Assembly (NCBI RefSeq): GCF_021028995.1
Contig: NZ_JAJJZG010000014.1
Coordinates: 1 to 64,000 of the forward strand
Length of the DNA stretch: 64,000 bases
Direction of reading: 5' to 3'
Origin: Halobacterium sp. KA-4
Lineage (GTDB): Archaea; Halobacteriota; Halobacteria; Halobacteriales; Halobacteriaceae
Part shown: positions 1,522 through 21,698 of the stretch, piece after piece
Layout of the letters: every line of letters starts with the position of its first letter
Numbering within the stretch: the first letter of the stretch is position 1
Made by a program: the position numbers and the translations under genes
The notes under the pieces: generated by a model
Database searches by the model: none
Seen by the model: the letters and a program-made list of their open reading frames with translations, nothing else
What the model was told of the DNA's origin: nothing

Positions 1522-2469
1522 ATGGCTACGACCAGTGATTCGTCGGTCTCCTTCGACCAGACCGACACGCGATCCGACGAGATGAACAGCACGATCGAAC
1601 AGTGGATCGACGACCTCGTCGCCGGCGTCGACGATGCGCAGGCCAGCTCAGAGTTCCAGGAGTGGCTTGACGTCCAGAGTCGGTTCTACGACTACTCCTA
1701 CCGGAACACGCTCCTCATCAAGCGGCAGTGTCCCGAGGCAACCCGCGTGGCTGGCTACCGGACGTGGCAGGAGGAGTTCGACCGCCACGTCACGGAGGGC
1801 GAGTCGGCCATCTGGATCTGGGCGCCGATCATCACCAAGCAGTGCCCGGAGTGCGAGAACTCGCCGAGCTACCACGAGGACAGCGACTGTGACTACGACG
1901 AGACGCCGCCCGAGGAGTGGTCCGAGGGACTCGTCGGGTTCAAGCCCGCGCCGGTGTTCGACGTCTCCCAGACCGAGGGCGAGCCGCTTCCCGACCTAGA
2001 CACGGAAGCGACCGGCGACGCCGGCGACCTCGTCGAACAGCTAACTGCCGCCGCTGACGACCTCGGCGTGACGGTGCGGATCGTTCCAGCCGAGGAGTGG
2101 ACCCACGGCGAGGCAAAGGGCATCTGCGAGCAGCTAAGCCTCGTCGACGTTCAGCCGCTCGTCGAGGTGCGTGATCGGGAGAACGAGGCCGACCTCGCGC
2201 GGACGCTGATTCACGAGTACGCCCACGCCCTGCTCCACTTCGACGTCGACGACGACACCGAACGGGCAAAACGCGAGGTCGAGGCTGAAGCCGTCGCGTA
2301 CGTTGTCGGTCGCTACTGCGGGCTCGACACGAGCGGGTCAGCGTTCTACCTCGCTGCGTGGGAGTCGGACGATCCCGAGGTCGTTCGCGAGCGCCTCGGC
2401 CGGATTAGTCGAACGGCAGAAGAACTCATCGACGTTCTCGAGGAAAAATTCTCTCTCCAATTTGATTAA
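1522..2469 (+). CDS. ArdC-like protein with ImmA/IrrE-type zinc metallopeptidase domain
   Basis: A 315-residue protein with two parts. Residues ~20-150 resemble the ssDNA-binding N-terminal domain of ArdC antirestriction proteins (FQEWLDVQSRFYDYSYRNTLLI, AGYRTWQEEFDRHV, AIWIWAPI) and contain an inserted Cys/His cluster (CPEC near CDYDE). The C-terminal part has a zincin motif HEYAHALLH with a downstream EAEAVAYVVG, the zinc ligand pattern of ImmA/IrrE peptidases. Such proteins occur on plasmids, where ArdC protects incoming DNA. The ATG at 1522 is preferred over the GTG at 1513. The stop codon lies inside the left arm of an inverted repeat (2464-2508). Confidence 0.8.
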   Translation: MATTSDSSVSFDQTDTRSDEMNSTIEQWIDDLVAGVDDAQASSEFQEWLDVQSRFYDYSYRNTLLIKRQCPEATRVAGYRTWQEEFDRHVTEGESAIWIWAPIITKQCPECENSPSYHEDSDCDYDETPPEEWSEGLVGFKPAPVFDVSQTEGEPLPDLDTEATGDAGDLVEQLTAAADDLGVTVRIVPAEEWTHGEAKGICEQLSLVDVQPLVEVRDRENEADLARTLIHEYAHALLHFDVDDDTERAKREVEAEAVAYVVGRYCGLDTSGSAFYLAAWESDDPEVVRERLGRISRTAEELIDVLEEKFSLQFD

Positions 2470-2508
2470 CCAACAGAGGGATGTGTAGTTTTGTATTGTT
2501 GGTTAATC
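2464..2508. repeat. Bipartite inverted repeat, copy A
   Basis: GATTAACCAACA at 2464-2475 and its exact complement TGTTGGTTAATC at 2497-2508 are separated by 21 bp. This is the longest perfect copy (12-bp arms) of a six-copy family. The left arm overlaps the stop codon of the ArdC-like gene. The IS5-family element was inserted 40 bp to the right. Confidence 0.85.
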
Positions 2509-7084: not shown

Positions 7085-7125
7085 TTAACCAACAAAACTA
7101 TGGGTTCATGGGACGTGTTGGTTAA
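7085..7125. repeat. Bipartite inverted repeat, copy B
   Basis: TTAACCAACA (7085-7094), 21 bp, then TGTTGGTTAA (7116-7125). It lies between divergent genes and ends 15 bp before the ATG at 7140, so it covers the promoter position of that gene. Confidence 0.85.
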
Positions 7126-7139
7126 CACGAGAGTAGCCG

Positions 7140-7463
7140 ATGTCCTACGAACCCCCGACCCCACCGGCGAACCTCCCGACGGAGATCGTCAACACGCTCA
7201 ATGAAGCCACACCGGAGCATCTTCGGGATGTTGCCAGCTACGCCGAGGCGTTGGCGGAACACAAAGAGCGGGAAGCTCGTCTCGAGGAGGAAGCGGACGA
7301 CGCCGACGTCGAGGAGCGCCCCGATGACCTCCCAGACGACGTGCCGGCGAAGGCGACGATCACGATCAAGGAGATCAACGACAACCGCTACTACTACTGG
7401 CAGTGGCGAGATGGCGACAGAATCCGCTCTAAGTACAAGAGACCAGTTAATCCCGACGAGTGA
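7140..7463 (+). CDS. Hypothetical small acidic protein with basic-aromatic C-terminus
   Basis: A 107-residue protein that I do not recognise with certainty. The middle is a charged helix (AEALAEHKEREARLEEEADD), and the C-terminus has NDNRYYYWQWRDGDRIRSKYK, a pattern seen in small haloarchaeal plasmid proteins. No function is suggested by the sequence. Bipartite repeat copy B covers its promoter region, so it may belong to the set of genes controlled through that repeat. Confidence 0.6.
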   Translation: MSYEPPTPPANLPTEIVNTLNEATPEHLRDVASYAEALAEHKEREARLEEEADDADVEERPDDLPDDVPAKATITIKEINDNRYYYWQWRDGDRIRSKYKRPVNPDE

Positions 7464-7554: not shown

Positions 7555-7746
7555 CTCCACTATTGCCAGTAAAAGCGGCGTACGATAGTGCATCATAGAT
7601 TACTGGCAACCAGGGTGTTTGAGAATCAAATCATATATATTTCATATATGAGGGTACTGGCAACACCGGAGAGGGTACTGGAAAAACTGGCACTGACGGT
7701 TACGTGGTTACTGGCAAAAGTGGAGAGGGTATTGGCAGTACTGGTG
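7555..7746. repeat. Iteron cluster on the 3' side of the orc gene
   Basis: The box TTACTGGCAATAGTGGAG occurs inverted at 7555-7572, and a near copy TTACTGGCAAAAGTGGAG lies at 7708-7725. Shorter relatives of TACTGGCAA start near 7600, 7654, 7675 and 7729, all on the plus strand. The stretch is AT-rich around ATATATATTTCATATATG (about 7632-7650). The same box recurs upstream of orc at 9130 and 9314. These look like binding sites of the Orc protein encoded between the clusters. Confidence 0.75.
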
Positions 7747-7761
7747 TTGGCGGTTCTGAAG

Positions 7762-9018
7762 TCATTCCAGAACCCGATGCCGTTTCGCAGTTTCACGAAT
7801 ATCGTCAAGCTCTCCTAGCTCACCCTCGAGTGCATCAAGAGCTGACGATAGAGAGACATCAAGCTCGTATTCGTTGTAGTTCCCGCGTCCACCCGACGAG
7901 TCGACCAACCGCAGGATTCCGTGAAGGCTCAAATCTGACAAGTGGTCGTGTACCCGCCTGCGTTTCAGCGGTTCACTGCCGTGATCACGAAGAACCTCTT
8001 GATACCGTTCATAGATCAGTTTCGTCCGTTCGGGTGTTTCACCCTCTGCTGCCAGCTGGCAGACTGTTAGTAGCACATACTGTCCCTGTCGGGTCAGCGA
8101 ATGCATTCCCTCGACAACCTGTTGGCGCTGAATTTGATGTTCTCCCTCCCGAACGTGCTCCTCGGTGATCTTCGCCTCCCCGTCGGCCATTGCCTCGTTT
8201 TCAGCGATATCGGCTGCTTTCCGGAGTAACCGTAGCGCCTGTCGAGCCGATCCCGAATCCTGTGCAGAGAACGCTGCGCACAACGGAATTACATCTGTCT
8301 CAAGAACATCATCGTAGAACGCAATATCGGCGCGTTGCCGGAGAATATTCTGTAATTCCGTCGCGTCGTAGGGAGGGAATAGAATTTCCTCCTCGCAGAG
8401 CGTATCCTTAACTTTCGGAGAGAGGTTTTCGCGGAATTTGAAATCATTCGAAATGCCGACTACACCTAATTTCACATCGAGATCCAGCTGTGAGCGTGCT
8501 CGCGGGAGTTCGTACAAGATATCGTCATCCGATCCGATATTATCGATCTCGTCCAAGACCACGAGAATCGTCCCACCGACCGACTCGAGGTCATTGTAGA
8601 GTTCGTTGAAGATACGCTTTTGCTGATATCCGGTTTCACTCATGGGTTCGCGTGGAGACGAGACAGTAGTGAGAGGATGGGACGGAGAGCGAATCTCGTT
8701 CACGAGATTGACCGCTACCTGATAGGATGTGGTGCAACCAGTACAGTTGAGTTCGATAACGTTGAGATCGACGTCATCATATTCTTCGGCAGATTCCTGC
8801 AGCTCCTCAAGAAGATCGTGCGTCGCAGCTGTCTTCCCAACGCCGGTAACGCCATAAAGAAAGACGTTGTTCGGTTGCCAGCCCTGAATGACGGGACGGA
8901 GAGCGGCCGCATATTCGTCGAGTTCTTCATCCCGCTCCTCGAGCGTCTCTGGCTGATAATCATCTCGGAGGACATCTTTGTCCTGGATGATGAACGATTC
9001 TCGATTGAATCGGCCCAT
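7762..9018 (-). CDS. Orc1/Cdc6 family replication initiator
   Basis: A 418-residue AAA+ protein of normal length. It has a Walker A motif (GVTGVGKTAA) near residue 60, a Walker B motif (ILVVLDEIDNIGSDD) near 150, a sensor-like VVGISNDFKF, an arginine-finger/box VII region SGSARQALRLLRKAA, and a C-terminal winged helix (RRRVHDHLSDLSLHGILRLVDSSGGRGNYNEYEL). I use the ATG at 9018 (MGRFNRESFI) rather than 9030. Such proteins bind origin recognition boxes and load the MCM helicase. TACTGGCAA-type boxes on both sides make this the likely active initiator of the replicon. Confidence 0.9.
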   Translation of the reverse strand: MGRFNRESFIIQDKDVLRDDYQPETLEERDEELDEYAAALRPVIQGWQPNNVFLYGVTGVGKTAATHDLLEELQESAEEYDDVDLNVIELNCTGCTTSYQVAVNLVNEIRSPSHPLTTVSSPREPMSETGYQQKRIFNELYNDLESVGGTILVVLDEIDNIGSDDDILYELPRARSQLDLDVKLGVVGISNDFKFRENLSPKVKDTLCEEEILFPPYDATELQNILRQRADIAFYDDVLETDVIPLCAAFSAQDSGSARQALRLLRKAADIAENEAMADGEAKITEEHVREGEHQIQRQQVVEGMHSLTRQGQYVLLTVCQLAAEGETPERTKLIYERYQEVLRDHGSEPLKRRRVHDHLSDLSLHGILRLVDSSGGRGNYNEYELDVSLSSALDALEGELGELDDIRETAKRHRVLE

Positions 9019-9129
9019 AGGCGGACCCAAGACGAAGAACCATCATAAAACCAGGGGTTCCAGTATCGCCACTAACCCACCACTCGAACCAGTTATGCCA
9101 GTATCGCATCTACTTATAAAACACACACA

Positions 9130-9331
9130 CTCCACTATTGCCAGTAAACCTTCGCAACAACTGGAGGGGGTCGTTGACCCCTCTCTAGCCAGCGATACTT
9201 TTATTATAATAGGCGTAAAACCAAAACCGTACTAGCGGAAACGCAAATAGCTGTAGTGGGTGGAGTAATAGCAACTAGACTAGAGACGTGACAGCTTCTG
9301 CCCTCCCGTCTCGTTACTGGCAATAGTGGAG
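9130..9331. other. Candidate replication origin: AT-rich block between inverted iterons
   Basis: TTACTGGCAATAGTGGAG lies inverted at 9130-9147 and direct at 9314-9331, 166 bp apart. Between them is an AT-rich run (ATACTTTTATTATAATAGG, near 9194-9212) that could serve as the unwinding element. Further partial boxes flank the pair (TTGGCAATACTGGCAACTC near 9360). An AT-rich element between inverted origin boxes upstream of a cdc6 gene is the known layout of haloarchaeal origins. The boxes differ from the usual haloarchaeal ORB sequence, so this would be a plasmid-specific type. Confidence 0.7.
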
Positions 9332-9584: not shown

Positions 9585-9624
9585 TTAACCAACAAAGCGC
9601 ACGTATTGACGGTCTGTTGGTTAA
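9585..9624. repeat. Bipartite inverted repeat, copy C
   Basis: TTAACCAACA (9585-9594), 20 bp, TGTTGGTTAA (9615-9624). It lies in the gap between the origin region and the 3' end of the broken second orc gene. It is one base shorter in the spacer than the other copies. Confidence 0.85.
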
Positions 9625-9748: not shown

Positions 9749-10710
9749 TTACTGCATTAGCGACGCAACTTCCGAACCGACGAGTGAGTACTTCCGGTCC
9801 CGGCTCGTGCCTTTCGCATCAAGGAGGTTGTACTGGGCCATCTTGGAGAGATACGTCCGCACTGTCCGTTTGGTCCGGGGGTCATCGACGTCCTCGGTAT
9901 AGCGCTCGTGAATCTCGCTCGGGCCGACTGGGCCGTGCTCACGAACGATGTCGTAGACGGCGCGCTGGTGTGGCGTGAGCGAGTCGAGGCTCTTCTGCTT
10001 GATTTGGGCCCGAGCATCCTCGGCGGCGTCCAGGAGAATGTCGTCGGTGATGCGCTCGTGGTTTTCGCGATCTGCTTTGCCGGCGGCCGTTCGGAGGATG
10101 CCGATTGCGAGTCGGGCGTCGCCGGCGGCGGCGATCCGATAGAGCTGGTTGTCGGTGATGACGTCCTCGTCGAGGCCCCACTTCGCCCGCGCACTCAGGA
10201 TCTCGTACAGCTGCTCGTCGTGGTACTTGTCCATCCGGACGTGCTCGCTCGAATGGAGCCGACTCACGAGCCGGTCGTCGACGCGACTGAACAGCTCCTC
10301 TTCCTTGTTCGCGATGCAGATGATCGCGAACTGCGGGAGGCTGTGGAGGTCGTAGATGACGCTGGGATCTTCGAGCTGGTCGACCTCGTCGAGGATGACG
10401 ACCGTTCGCGGGCCGTCGTGCTGCTGGAGGCGGTCGACGAGTTCGTCGTGGGGCGTCGACTGCCGGTGGATGTCGATGGTCGCGCCGAGGTCGTCTCGAC
10501 GTCGAGGACTTTCTCGCGTAGTCGCTCGGTAACGAACTTCGAGATACATGTTTTGCCGGCGCCGCTAGGGCCAGTGACGATGGCGGTGTCGACAGGCTCG
10601 TCGTTCGCGATTGGTTCAAGGACGCTAGAGAGGTGGTTGACTTCGGCGTCACGATGCTCGACTTCTCGAGGGACGAATCCGGCACGGAGGACGCGAGCAT
10701 CGCGGCTCAT
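9749..10710 (-). pseudogene. Orc1/Cdc6 family initiator, broken by an internal deletion
   Basis: The N-terminal part starts at ATG 10710 (SRDARVLRAGFVPREVEHRD; Walker A TGPSGAGKT; ERLREKVLDVET). The rest (LGATIDIHRQSTPHDELV, Walker B TVVILDEVDQLED, and a C-terminal winged helix to 9749) is in another frame. At the junction near 10488-10500 the ~20 residues expected between the Walker A helix and LGATID (a VNCW-type strand) are missing. So a deletion of some 60 bases plus a frame change has destroyed the gene. ORB-like palindromes remain upstream. It is probably the relic of a second origin. Confidence 0.8.
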
Positions 10711-12519: not shown

Positions 12520-12560
12520 TTAACCAACGAACTGAGCGGACTGCCCCAGATGTTGGTTAA
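12520..12560. repeat. Bipartite inverted repeat, copy D
   Basis: TTAACCAACG (12520-12529, one mismatch to the consensus), 21 bp, TGTTGGTTAA (12551-12560). It is preceded by the TCGTGTGAAC-box region, as at copy F. An ATG inside the right arm is in frame with the next gene, but is probably not its start. Confidence 0.8.
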
Positions 12561-18050: not shown

Positions 18051-18091
18051 TTAACCAACACTTGCGTATACAAAGCCCAGTTGTTGGTTAG
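18051..18091. repeat. Bipartite inverted repeat, copy E
   Basis: TTAACCAACA (18051-18060), 21 bp, TGTTGGTTAG (18082-18091; last base differs). It lies after the small CxxC protein gene and 26 bp before a dispersed element. Confidence 0.8.
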
Positions 18092-18780: not shown

Positions 18781-18821
18781 CTAACCAACACCTGCCGGCA
18801 GATTCGGTCTGTGTTGGTTAA
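18781..18821. repeat. Bipartite inverted repeat, copy F
   Basis: CTAACCAACA (18781-18790), 21 bp, TGTTGGTTAA (18812-18821). It follows the second TCGTGTGAAC-box region, as copy D follows the first. Confidence 0.8.
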
Positions 18822-20613: not shown

Positions 20614-20737
20614 ATTTCTATAATTTCTATAAATCTCGTGATTCAGCCCCTACACAGCCACAATTTCTATAAATTATGGAAACTATGCAATTCCCTAAAA
20701 TCACGCAAAGTTTTAACATGAGAAGAATTATAGAAAT
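20614..20737. promoter_or_regulatory. ATTTCTATA repeats before parA (operator or centromere)
   Basis: ATTTCTATA occurs in tandem at 20614-20622 and 20623-20631, again at 20663-20671, and inverted (TATAGAAAT) at 20729-20737, just before the parA ATG. The stretch is much more AT-rich than its surroundings. Sites in front of a partition operon usually bind the partner protein and serve as operator, centromere or both. Confidence 0.65.
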
Positions 20738-20744
20738 TACCACG

Positions 20745-21698
20745 ATGAGCGAGCCAACACCCCGCGCCGTCTCATTCGCGATGCTCAAAGGCGGCTTCGG
20801 CAAATCAATCTGCGCAAACACCCTCGGCGGCGTTCTCGGCAACCGCGGCCACAACGTCCTCGTCGCAGACCTCGACCCAGCAGGCCACCTCTCCACCGGC
20901 CTCGGATACTACACACGCGAAGACGAAGACAAAACCGACCTCGGAGACGTCCTCCTCAACGACGCCAACCCCCAAGAAATCATCAAGTCTCCCGGCTACG
21001 GATTCGACTTCATCCCCGCACTCAACCTCGAACGCGTCAACGACGATCTCGCCCGCGAGGACGTCTTCGCGAGCGACATGAAACTCAAAAACGAGCTCGT
21101 CGACCCGCTGCTCGGCGACGACTACGACTACATCCTCTTCGACGTCCCCGGCTCCCGGAACAAGCTCGTGAACAACGCAGTCGTCGGCGCACCGAACGCG
21201 ATTCTCCCCCTCATGCCGGCTCCAGAAGCCCTGAACGGCCTGCGGGAGACGTCGAAGAAGCTCGTGATGGACATTCGGAAAGCCTTCGATTTCGAGATTC
21301 TCGCAACCATCCCGAACAACCTCTCCCAACGGATCGACCAGCGGACGAAGGACCGCAACCTGCTTGAGTCGATGAACACTGACCCCACGTTTGCCGCCTA
21401 CCTCGAAGCTGGCCGTCGCGCCTCTTGGGAAGGCAGTCAGCCCGAGCTTCACGACGGCGTCGACGTCGAGGAAGTCCTGGACGAACACATCCCGTCGTTT
21501 GCGCGAATCACGGCCGAGCAGTGGGAACAGATCGATAACGGGGACCTCCACCTCAAGCCGGGCATCCGGCATTCCAGCGAGTTTGGGGACGCCTACGAGG
21601 AACGCCAGCCGCTAACGGCATACAACCCGGAGAACCCGCAGCTAGAGCACTTCGAGACGCTTGCTGATATCGTCGAGAACGGAGGGATGCAGGCATGA
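20745..21698 (+). CDS. parA: ParA-family partition ATPase
   Basis: A 317-residue protein. It has a deviant Walker A motif (MLKGGFGKSICANTLG, with GGFGKS in place of GGxGKT), a Walker A' region DLDPAGHLSTGLGYY, and a Walker B region YDYILFDVPGSRNKLVNNAVVGA. The ATG at 20745 is used because it is the first after the ATTTCTATA repeats and begins the conserved RAVSFAMLKGG segment. The protein should move or position the plasmid by ATP-driven DNA binding. Its stop overlaps the start of the next gene (ATGA). Confidence 0.85.
   Translation: MSEPTPRAVSFAMLKGGFGKSICANTLGGVLGNRGHNVLVADLDPAGHLSTGLGYYTREDEDKTDLGDVLLNDANPQEIIKSPGYGFDFIPALNLERVNDDLAREDVFASDMKLKNELVDPLLGDDYDYILFDVPGSRNKLVNNAVVGAPNAILPLMPAPEALNGLRETSKKLVMDIRKAFDFEILATIPNNLSQRIDQRTKDRNLLESMNTDPTFAAYLEAGRRASWEGSQPELHDGVDVEEVLDEHIPSFARITAEQWEQIDNGDLHLKPGIRHSSEFGDAYEERQPLTAYNPENPQLEHFETLADIVENGGMQA

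What the first reader, a model, noticed from the sequence alone, without database searches (positions are those of the whole stretch)
7555..9331. Candidate plasmid origin with a box type unlike the usual haloarchaeal ORB
TTACTGGCAATAGTGGAG occurs exactly three times (7555, 9130, 9314) and once with a single change (7708), with more partial copies. It brackets the intact orc gene on both sides. The pair at 9130/9314 is inverted around an AT-rich block. The sequence lacks the TTTCC-GGAAAC core of common haloarchaeal origin boxes, so initiator and box may have co-evolved separately.
Basis: partly seen in the sequence, partly recalled or inferred. Interest (0 to 1): 0.65.

Follow-up and report, generated by a model that had tools for sequence, protein, structure and literature searches.

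The report
Plasmid replication origin with initiator-specific boxes
This is a replication-start module of a salt-loving archaeal plasmid: an initiator gene with its own set of binding boxes on both sides, a family-specific version of the known archaeal origin box; the less expected part is a 9-bp repeat of half-boxes against the initiator's own promoter, which recurs in many divergent initiator families and suggests that the initiator controls its own supply.

Summary
In detail: TTACTGGCAATAGTGGAG lies exactly at 7555, 9130 and 9314 and with one change at 7708, on both sides of an intact orc1/cdc6 gene, and nowhere else in the 3.34-Mb genome. The same 2-kb module (orc plus both arrays) occurs in at least 15 haloarchaeal genera, and on eight complete plasmids as the only detectable Orc relative, so a plasmid origin is the best reading; no replication data exist. 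The claim that the box is unlike the usual ORB is not supported. It is a family-specific ORB: core ACTGGCAA instead of ACTGGAAA, followed by a GT/G-string (14/18 identical to a canonical-type box), one of a graded series that tracks Orc identity. Orc/ORB linkage is already known (Wu 2012). The layout resembles oriC2 of Haloarcula hispanica: origin upstream, extra boxes downstream (titration). The period recurs in promoters across 23 divergent Orc families (lag-9 autocorrelation 0.44, other lags about 0.26; 43 control genes 0.28, p=2e-6), and promoter words match each family's own boxes. This points to initiator autoregulation. I found no report of it in the papers held here.

The parts
7762..9018 (-). 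orc1/cdc6 initiator gene, 418 aa, AAA+ (Walker A GVTGVGKT, Walker B VVLDEID), Cdc6 lid and C-terminal winged helix
9314..9331 (+). ORB, perfect copy; outer member of the inverted origin pair, followed by TGAGAGAGG
   Evidence: conserved at this place in diverged homologues
9130..9147 (-). ORB, perfect copy; inner member of the inverted origin pair, followed by TGTGTGTG
9148..9313 (.). Central block between the inverted ORBs (putative unwinding region), 50.6% A+T
   Evidence: unwinding inferred
9165..9182 (.). G-rich inverted repeat GGGGGTC-GTT-GACCCC inside the ORB pair; kept in several homologues (L023, L024, L035) with changed loop; compare the G-rich inverted-repeat enhancer of oriC1
   Evidence: alignment, read by eye; analogy from PMC3936714
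9358..9381 (+). Outer tandem half-boxes TATTGGCAA-TACTGGCAA-CTCTGG, 9-bp period
   Evidence: conserved in most homologues
9089..9105 (-). Degenerate box GATACTGGCATAACTGG, part of the promoter-proximal array
9058..9075 (-). Half-box array TTAGTGGCGATACTGGAA directly upstream of the orc TATA element
   Evidence: lag-9 signal p=0.002 for this promoter
9045..9055 (-). CCTGGTTTTAT: BRE/TATA-like element of orc, 26 nt before the ATG; its TGG is in 9-bp phase with the half-boxes
   Evidence: promoter role inferred from position and conservation
7708..7725 (+). ORB copy with one mismatch, downstream array
7555..7572 (-). ORB, perfect copy, downstream array
   Evidence: missing in the more diverged L034 and L035
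7601..7753 (+). Degenerate downstream boxes at 7601, 7655, 7676, 7685, 7730, 7739 (two 9-bp steps); putative Orc-titrating cluster
   Evidence: function inferred by analogy with oriC2D

Best explanation
This is an orc1/cdc6-associated replication origin of a haloarchaeal plasmid of about 100 kb. Most likely mechanism: the Orc at 7762-9018 binds the two inverted ORBs at 9130 and 9314, opens the 166-bp block between them and loads MCM (inferred from the family). Orc also binds the 9-bp tandem half-boxes at 9045-9112 that abut its own BRE/TATA element and so represses its own transcription (inferred). The box cluster downstream of orc (7555-7753) takes up surplus Orc, as oriC2D does in Haloarcula hispanica (inferred). 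Shown here: the elements, their selective conservation, their co-occurrence with this Orc, their family specificity, and the 9-bp promoter periodicity across Orc families. Not shown: binding, replication, repression.
For: Module found with 84-97% identical Orc in 21 genome loci, every one with boxes on both sides at near-constant spacing. In intergenic alignments of 85-97% Orcs the boxes stay while the rest diverges. In 392 species of the order the exact 15-mer is in 28 and this Orc in 26, both in 23, reversed-pattern control 1. The five box-only cases include two with Orc fragments next to the boxes, one of them at a contig end, and two with a downstream-type array and only a distant Orc. Eight complete plasmids of 99-186 kb have it as the only match to this Orc; one read in full has no other annotated Rep. 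The window's contig is 96,052 bases and carries a ParA-type ATPase. ORB series by Orc family. Promoter periodicity; promoter words match own-family distal boxes, 258 shared 7-mers against 108.6 expected, permutation p 5e-5. Titration precedent: PMC3936714.
Against: No ARS or marker-frequency data. GC and AT skew of a complete relative do not point to the module. The central block is only mildly AT-rich. A second, frame-broken orc lies at 9749-10710, so the region has a history of more than one initiator. Nine of 23 Orc families do not show the promoter period individually.
Confidence: 0.82

Rival explanations
1. Dormant or former origin: the module is a passenger on this replicon and the plasmid fires from another origin, while the orc stays for other reasons.
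For: Dormant orc-linked origins are documented in Haloferax mediterranei. The neighbouring second orc is broken, and arrays without an intact orc exist in other genomes (L074-L076). The genome has at least a dozen other orc genes.
Against: The orc is intact and its boxes look to be under selection. In eight complete plasmids it is the only match to this Orc. In the window the second orc, not this one, is decaying.
Confidence: 0.13
2. The boxes are mainly a transcriptional operator of the orc and neighbouring genes, and the protein acts as a regulator rather than an initiator, as Orc1-2 does in Sulfolobus.
For: A half-box array abuts the orc TATA element. Orc1-2 is a non-initiator regulator (PMC9738581, abstract).
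Against: Inverted pair around a central block, boxes on both sides of orc, and complete plasmids with no other Orc relative fit an origin better.
Confidence: 0.04
3. Chance repeat or mobile-element debris unrelated to Orc.
For: None beyond the mobility of the module.
Against: 0.01 expected matches in the window, cross-genome co-occurrence 23 of 26 against 5 of 366, conserved spacing.
Confidence: 0.01

Closest known systems
oriC2-cdc6E of Haloarcula hispanica with its downstream ORB-rich region oriC2D (PMC3936714)
   Same: Origin upstream of cdc6, additional ORB cluster downstream, Orc-specific boxes; negative control by the downstream cluster shown genetically there.
   Different: Different Orc family and different box; no functional data here.
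oriP-cdc6K of pHH400 and its relative on pNG700 (PMC3528665, PMC3936714)
   Same: Plasmid origin with adjacent orc (49.6% identical for the pHH400 and pNG700 copies) and inverted ORBs; in the pNG700 copy read here, ORBs on both sides and half-box repeats against GGTGGTTTTATA.
   Different: Box GAACAGCGGACACAGTGGTGTG instead of TTACTGGCAATAGTGGAG.
Canonical haloarchaeal/archaeal ORB (core plus G-string)
   Same: Same register: ACTGGCAAT + AGTGG + G/GT-string against ACTGGAAAC + AGTGGGGGG; 14 of 18 positions.
   Different: A to C in the core, T for C after it, GT-string instead of a pure G-run.
DnaA-box autoregulation of dnaA in bacteria
   Same: Initiator sites inside the initiator's own promoter (as cited in PMC3936714).
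   Different: Here archaeal Orc half-sites in a 9-bp tandem at BRE/TATA; regulation not tested.

Membership tests
orc1/cdc6-associated haloarchaeal replication origin | intergenic region directly adjacent to an orc1/cdc6 gene over 300 aa with AAA+ and winged-helix domains | tested here: met
orc1/cdc6-associated haloarchaeal replication origin | at least two inverted ORB repeats | tested here: met
   9130/9314 and 7555/7708 inverted
orc1/cdc6-associated haloarchaeal replication origin | AT-rich unwinding region between the ORBs | tested here: inconclusive
   50.6% and 54.8% A+T against 42.0%; local peaks 63%
orc1/cdc6-associated haloarchaeal replication origin | halophile-specific G-string at the end of the ORB | tested here: inconclusive
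   G-rich AGTGGAG followed by TGTGTGTG or TGAGAGAGG, not a pure G-run; the same GT-type string is seen in other Orc families
orc1/cdc6-associated haloarchaeal replication origin | ORB sequence specific to the Orc family | tested here: met
orc1/cdc6-associated haloarchaeal replication origin | autonomous replication or marker-frequency peak | not testable with these tools
   needs experiment or reads
a named Orc/origin family of Wu 2012 (members at least 80% identical) | Orc at least 80% identical to a named member | tested here: not met
   closest plasmid Orcs of the genomes in that study are about 53% identical; their chromosomes were covered only by the close-relative scan, which returned none of those organisms
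oriC2-type control (downstream titration) | ORB-rich region directly downstream of orc | tested here: met
   titrating function not testable here

The most novel reading that the evidence does not exclude
Haloarchaeal orc1/cdc6 genes of many divergent families carry, directly against their BRE/TATA element, a tandem array of their own ORB half-sites with a fixed 9-bp period. The ORB itself would be a two-unit version of this repeat fused to a G-string. The array would be an initiator-specific autoregulatory operator, an archaeal counterpart of DnaA boxes in the dnaA promoter, and it moves together with the origin as a self-regulated replicator-initiator cassette.
Probability: 0.6. Interest if true: 0.65.

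Novelty: new member of a known kind. Interest (0 to 1): 0.45.

Why it matters
It defines an Orc/ORB pair that appears to drive plasmids of roughly 100-300 kb across many haloarchaeal genera and gives exact elements to test. Such a portable module could serve as an orthogonal origin for vectors. The 9-bp half-box array at orc promoters makes a long-open question, how archaea set the dose of each of many initiators, directly testable by footprinting and promoter mutation.

Tried and rejected
Cumulative skews of a complete 99-kb relative gave no origin signal at the module. No phage relatives of the Orc. The literature library has no paper with the 14-mer; the original Haloferax volcanii mapping paper could not be read. 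The TTAACCAACA palindromes on both sides of the module were considered as cassette boundaries and rejected: they occur many times per genome. Coding periodicity as the cause of the lag-9 signal was rejected because lags 6 and 12 are flat. The first control gene set was contaminated with orc genes and was redone without them. Structure prediction was not run because domain assignment was already clear.

Full report
Observation. The 18-mer TTACTGGCAATAGTGGAG is at 7555 (-), 9130 (-) and 9314 (+), and with one change at 7708 (+); 0.01 such matches are expected in the window, and its 14-mer core occurs nowhere else in the 3.34-Mb genome at up to one mismatch. The gene between them, 7762-9018 (-), is an intact Orc1/Cdc6: TIGR02928 at 412.8 bits, Cdc6 lid and Cdc6_C winged helix, with archaeal Cdc6/Orc1 chains 2v1u and 2qby as the best solved relatives. 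Weaker boxes fill both intergenic regions: 11 of the 12 matches to TACTGGCAATAGTGG at up to 3 mismatches in 64 kb lie in those 680 bp. Both strict pairs are inverted with their GGAG ends outward. The block between 9130 and 9314 is only mildly AT-rich (50.6% against 42.0%).

Comparative evidence. A scan of 84,980 genomes gave 21 loci with 84-97% identical Orc, and all carry the boxes on both sides at nearly constant spacing. Alignment of intergenic regions from the more diverged members shows that the box elements upstream of orc, the element next to the promoter and the TATA-like element stay, while the DNA between them changes. In 392 species of the order, the exact 15-mer TACTGGCAATAGTGG is found in 28 (the reversed control in 1) and the Orc at E<=1e-150 in 26; comparing the two lists, 23 genomes have both. 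The three Orc-only cases are 61-64% identical or truncated. Of the five box-only cases, two carry Orc fragments beside the boxes (one at a contig end), two keep a downstream-type array with only a 35% Orc nearby, and one is an isolated partial match. The identity of the module to other replicons often ends within or near the module: 95-98% over 2.2-2.5 kb with one genome and 93-94% over 1.9-2.0 kb with another, with only weaker, separate matches beyond, so it behaves as a mobile replicator-initiator cassette; other plasmids share wider synteny. Eight complete plasmids of 99-186 kb hold it as the only match to this Orc, and the one read in full has no other annotated Rep protein. The window's contig is 96,052 bases long and carries a ParA-type ATPase at 20676-21695. 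A plasmid origin is therefore the best reading. No phage record has it.

Is the box unlike an ORB? No. Boxes found next to other Orcs fall into one register, a variable core followed by a G- or GT-string: this family TTACTGGCAATAGTGGAGTGTGTGTG; a 63% Orc TTACTGGCACGGGTGGTGTGTGTT and similar, again as an inverted pair upstream and four copies downstream; a 61% Orc AAACTGGCAATGGGGGTGTG; the 52-53% Orcs of pNG500 and Halalkalicoccus plasmid 2 TTCACTTGAAAGAGTGGTGTG; the 49.6% Orc of pNG700 AGAACAGCGGACACAGTGGTGTG; and a canonical-type pair TTCACTGGAAACAGTGGGGGGT. Other orc genes of the window's own genome have further boxes of the same design, for example AGAACAGCGGAACCAGTGGGGTGGGGGTGT and the inverted pair TTCCACTCGAAACGAAGGGGTGGGGG near the orc on contig 54. 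Ungapped, the 18-mer agrees with the canonical-type box at 14 positions; the key core difference is ACTGGCAA for ACTGGAAA. Orc-family-specific ORBs, and ORBs on both sides of orc, were described for haloarchaea in 2012 (PMC3528665). The family here is at most about 53% identical to the plasmid Orcs seen from that data set, so it is a new family of the known kind, not a new kind.

Mechanism. The layout matches oriC2-cdc6E of Haloarcula hispanica, where the origin lies upstream and an ORB-rich region downstream restrains it, likely by titrating Cdc6E (PMC3936714). By that analogy 9130/9314 is the origin proper and 7555-7753 a titration array. The downstream array is less conserved (its outer box is missing in L034 and L035), which fits a regulatory rather than an essential role. 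A G-rich inverted repeat at 9165-9182, kept with a changed loop in several homologues, recalls the G-rich inverted-repeat enhancer of oriC1 described in the same paper.

An additional finding. Upstream of the orc TATA-like element the half-boxes run in tandem at a 9-bp step: GTGGcgatACTGGaaccCCTGGTTTTAT here, ATTGGCAATACTGGCAATATTGGCAAGGGTGGTTTTATA beside the 63% Orc, CGGACACTCCGGACACTGCGGACAGGGGTGGTTTTATA beside the pNG700 Orc. I tested this on 23 Orc representatives below 65% identity with a TATA-like element. Mean autocorrelation at lag 9 in -75 to -33 is 0.439 against 0.24-0.30 at all other lags, and it is flat at -180 and -280. The signal peaks at -70 to -37. In 43 non-orc control genes lag 9 is 0.277 (p=2e-6), and in the 16 families not inspected beforehand it is 0.422 (p=3e-5). 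Fourteen of 23 families reach p<0.05 alone. Words in the promoter array recur in the same gene's distal boxes (258 shared 7-mers against 108.6 for other families, permutation p=5e-5), so the array is made largely of that family's own ORB half-sites. The natural reading is that Orc binding there competes with TFB/TBP and limits its own synthesis. Binding and repression are inferred. The searches made here found no report of it, but most subscription papers are not held. Limits: representatives were chosen for a TATA-like element, the controls are few, start codons are predicted, and relatedness among Orc families was handled only by the 65% cut.

Verdict. Observation confirmed; plasmid origin well supported by comparison but untested in the cell; the 'unusual box' claim is not supported, because the box is an ORB variant; initiator-box pairing is real but of a known kind. 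The 9-bp promoter array is the part most worth following up.

Noticed in passing
window 2466-2506, 7085-7125, 9585-9624, 12520-12560, 18051-18091, 18781-18821: Palindromes TTAACCAACA-N19..22-TGTTGGTTAA with non-conserved spacer; 21 in the own genome and exact copies in 23 of 40 related genomes (up to 30 each), none for the reversed control. One ends 14 bp before the ATG at 7140. Looks like the operator of a widespread, unidentified regulator of haloarchaeal accessory DNA.
   Followed up: partly
window 9749-10710 (-): A second, shorter orc1/cdc6 gene, frame-broken near 10500. The homologue in a Halorientalis plasmid (L017) is frame-broken at a different place, so this second initiator seems to be decaying independently in the plasmid family.
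   Followed up: partly
L074, L075, L076 (other genomes): Box arrays with only an Orc fragment or a distant 35% Orc nearby: orphan ORB clusters, either remnants or solitary titration sites.
   Followed up: no
window 7140-7463 (+): 107-aa conserved protein with no Pfam match; a 132-bp stretch of its gene is about 86-89% identical on many haloarchaeal plasmids, some with several copies per record.
   Followed up: no
L049 1109-1277: Another orc of the same genome has a 43-bp tandem repeat array on one side (four copies, the first two identical), each with ACCCCCCGCTTGCCCAAATGTAGAA.
   Followed up: no
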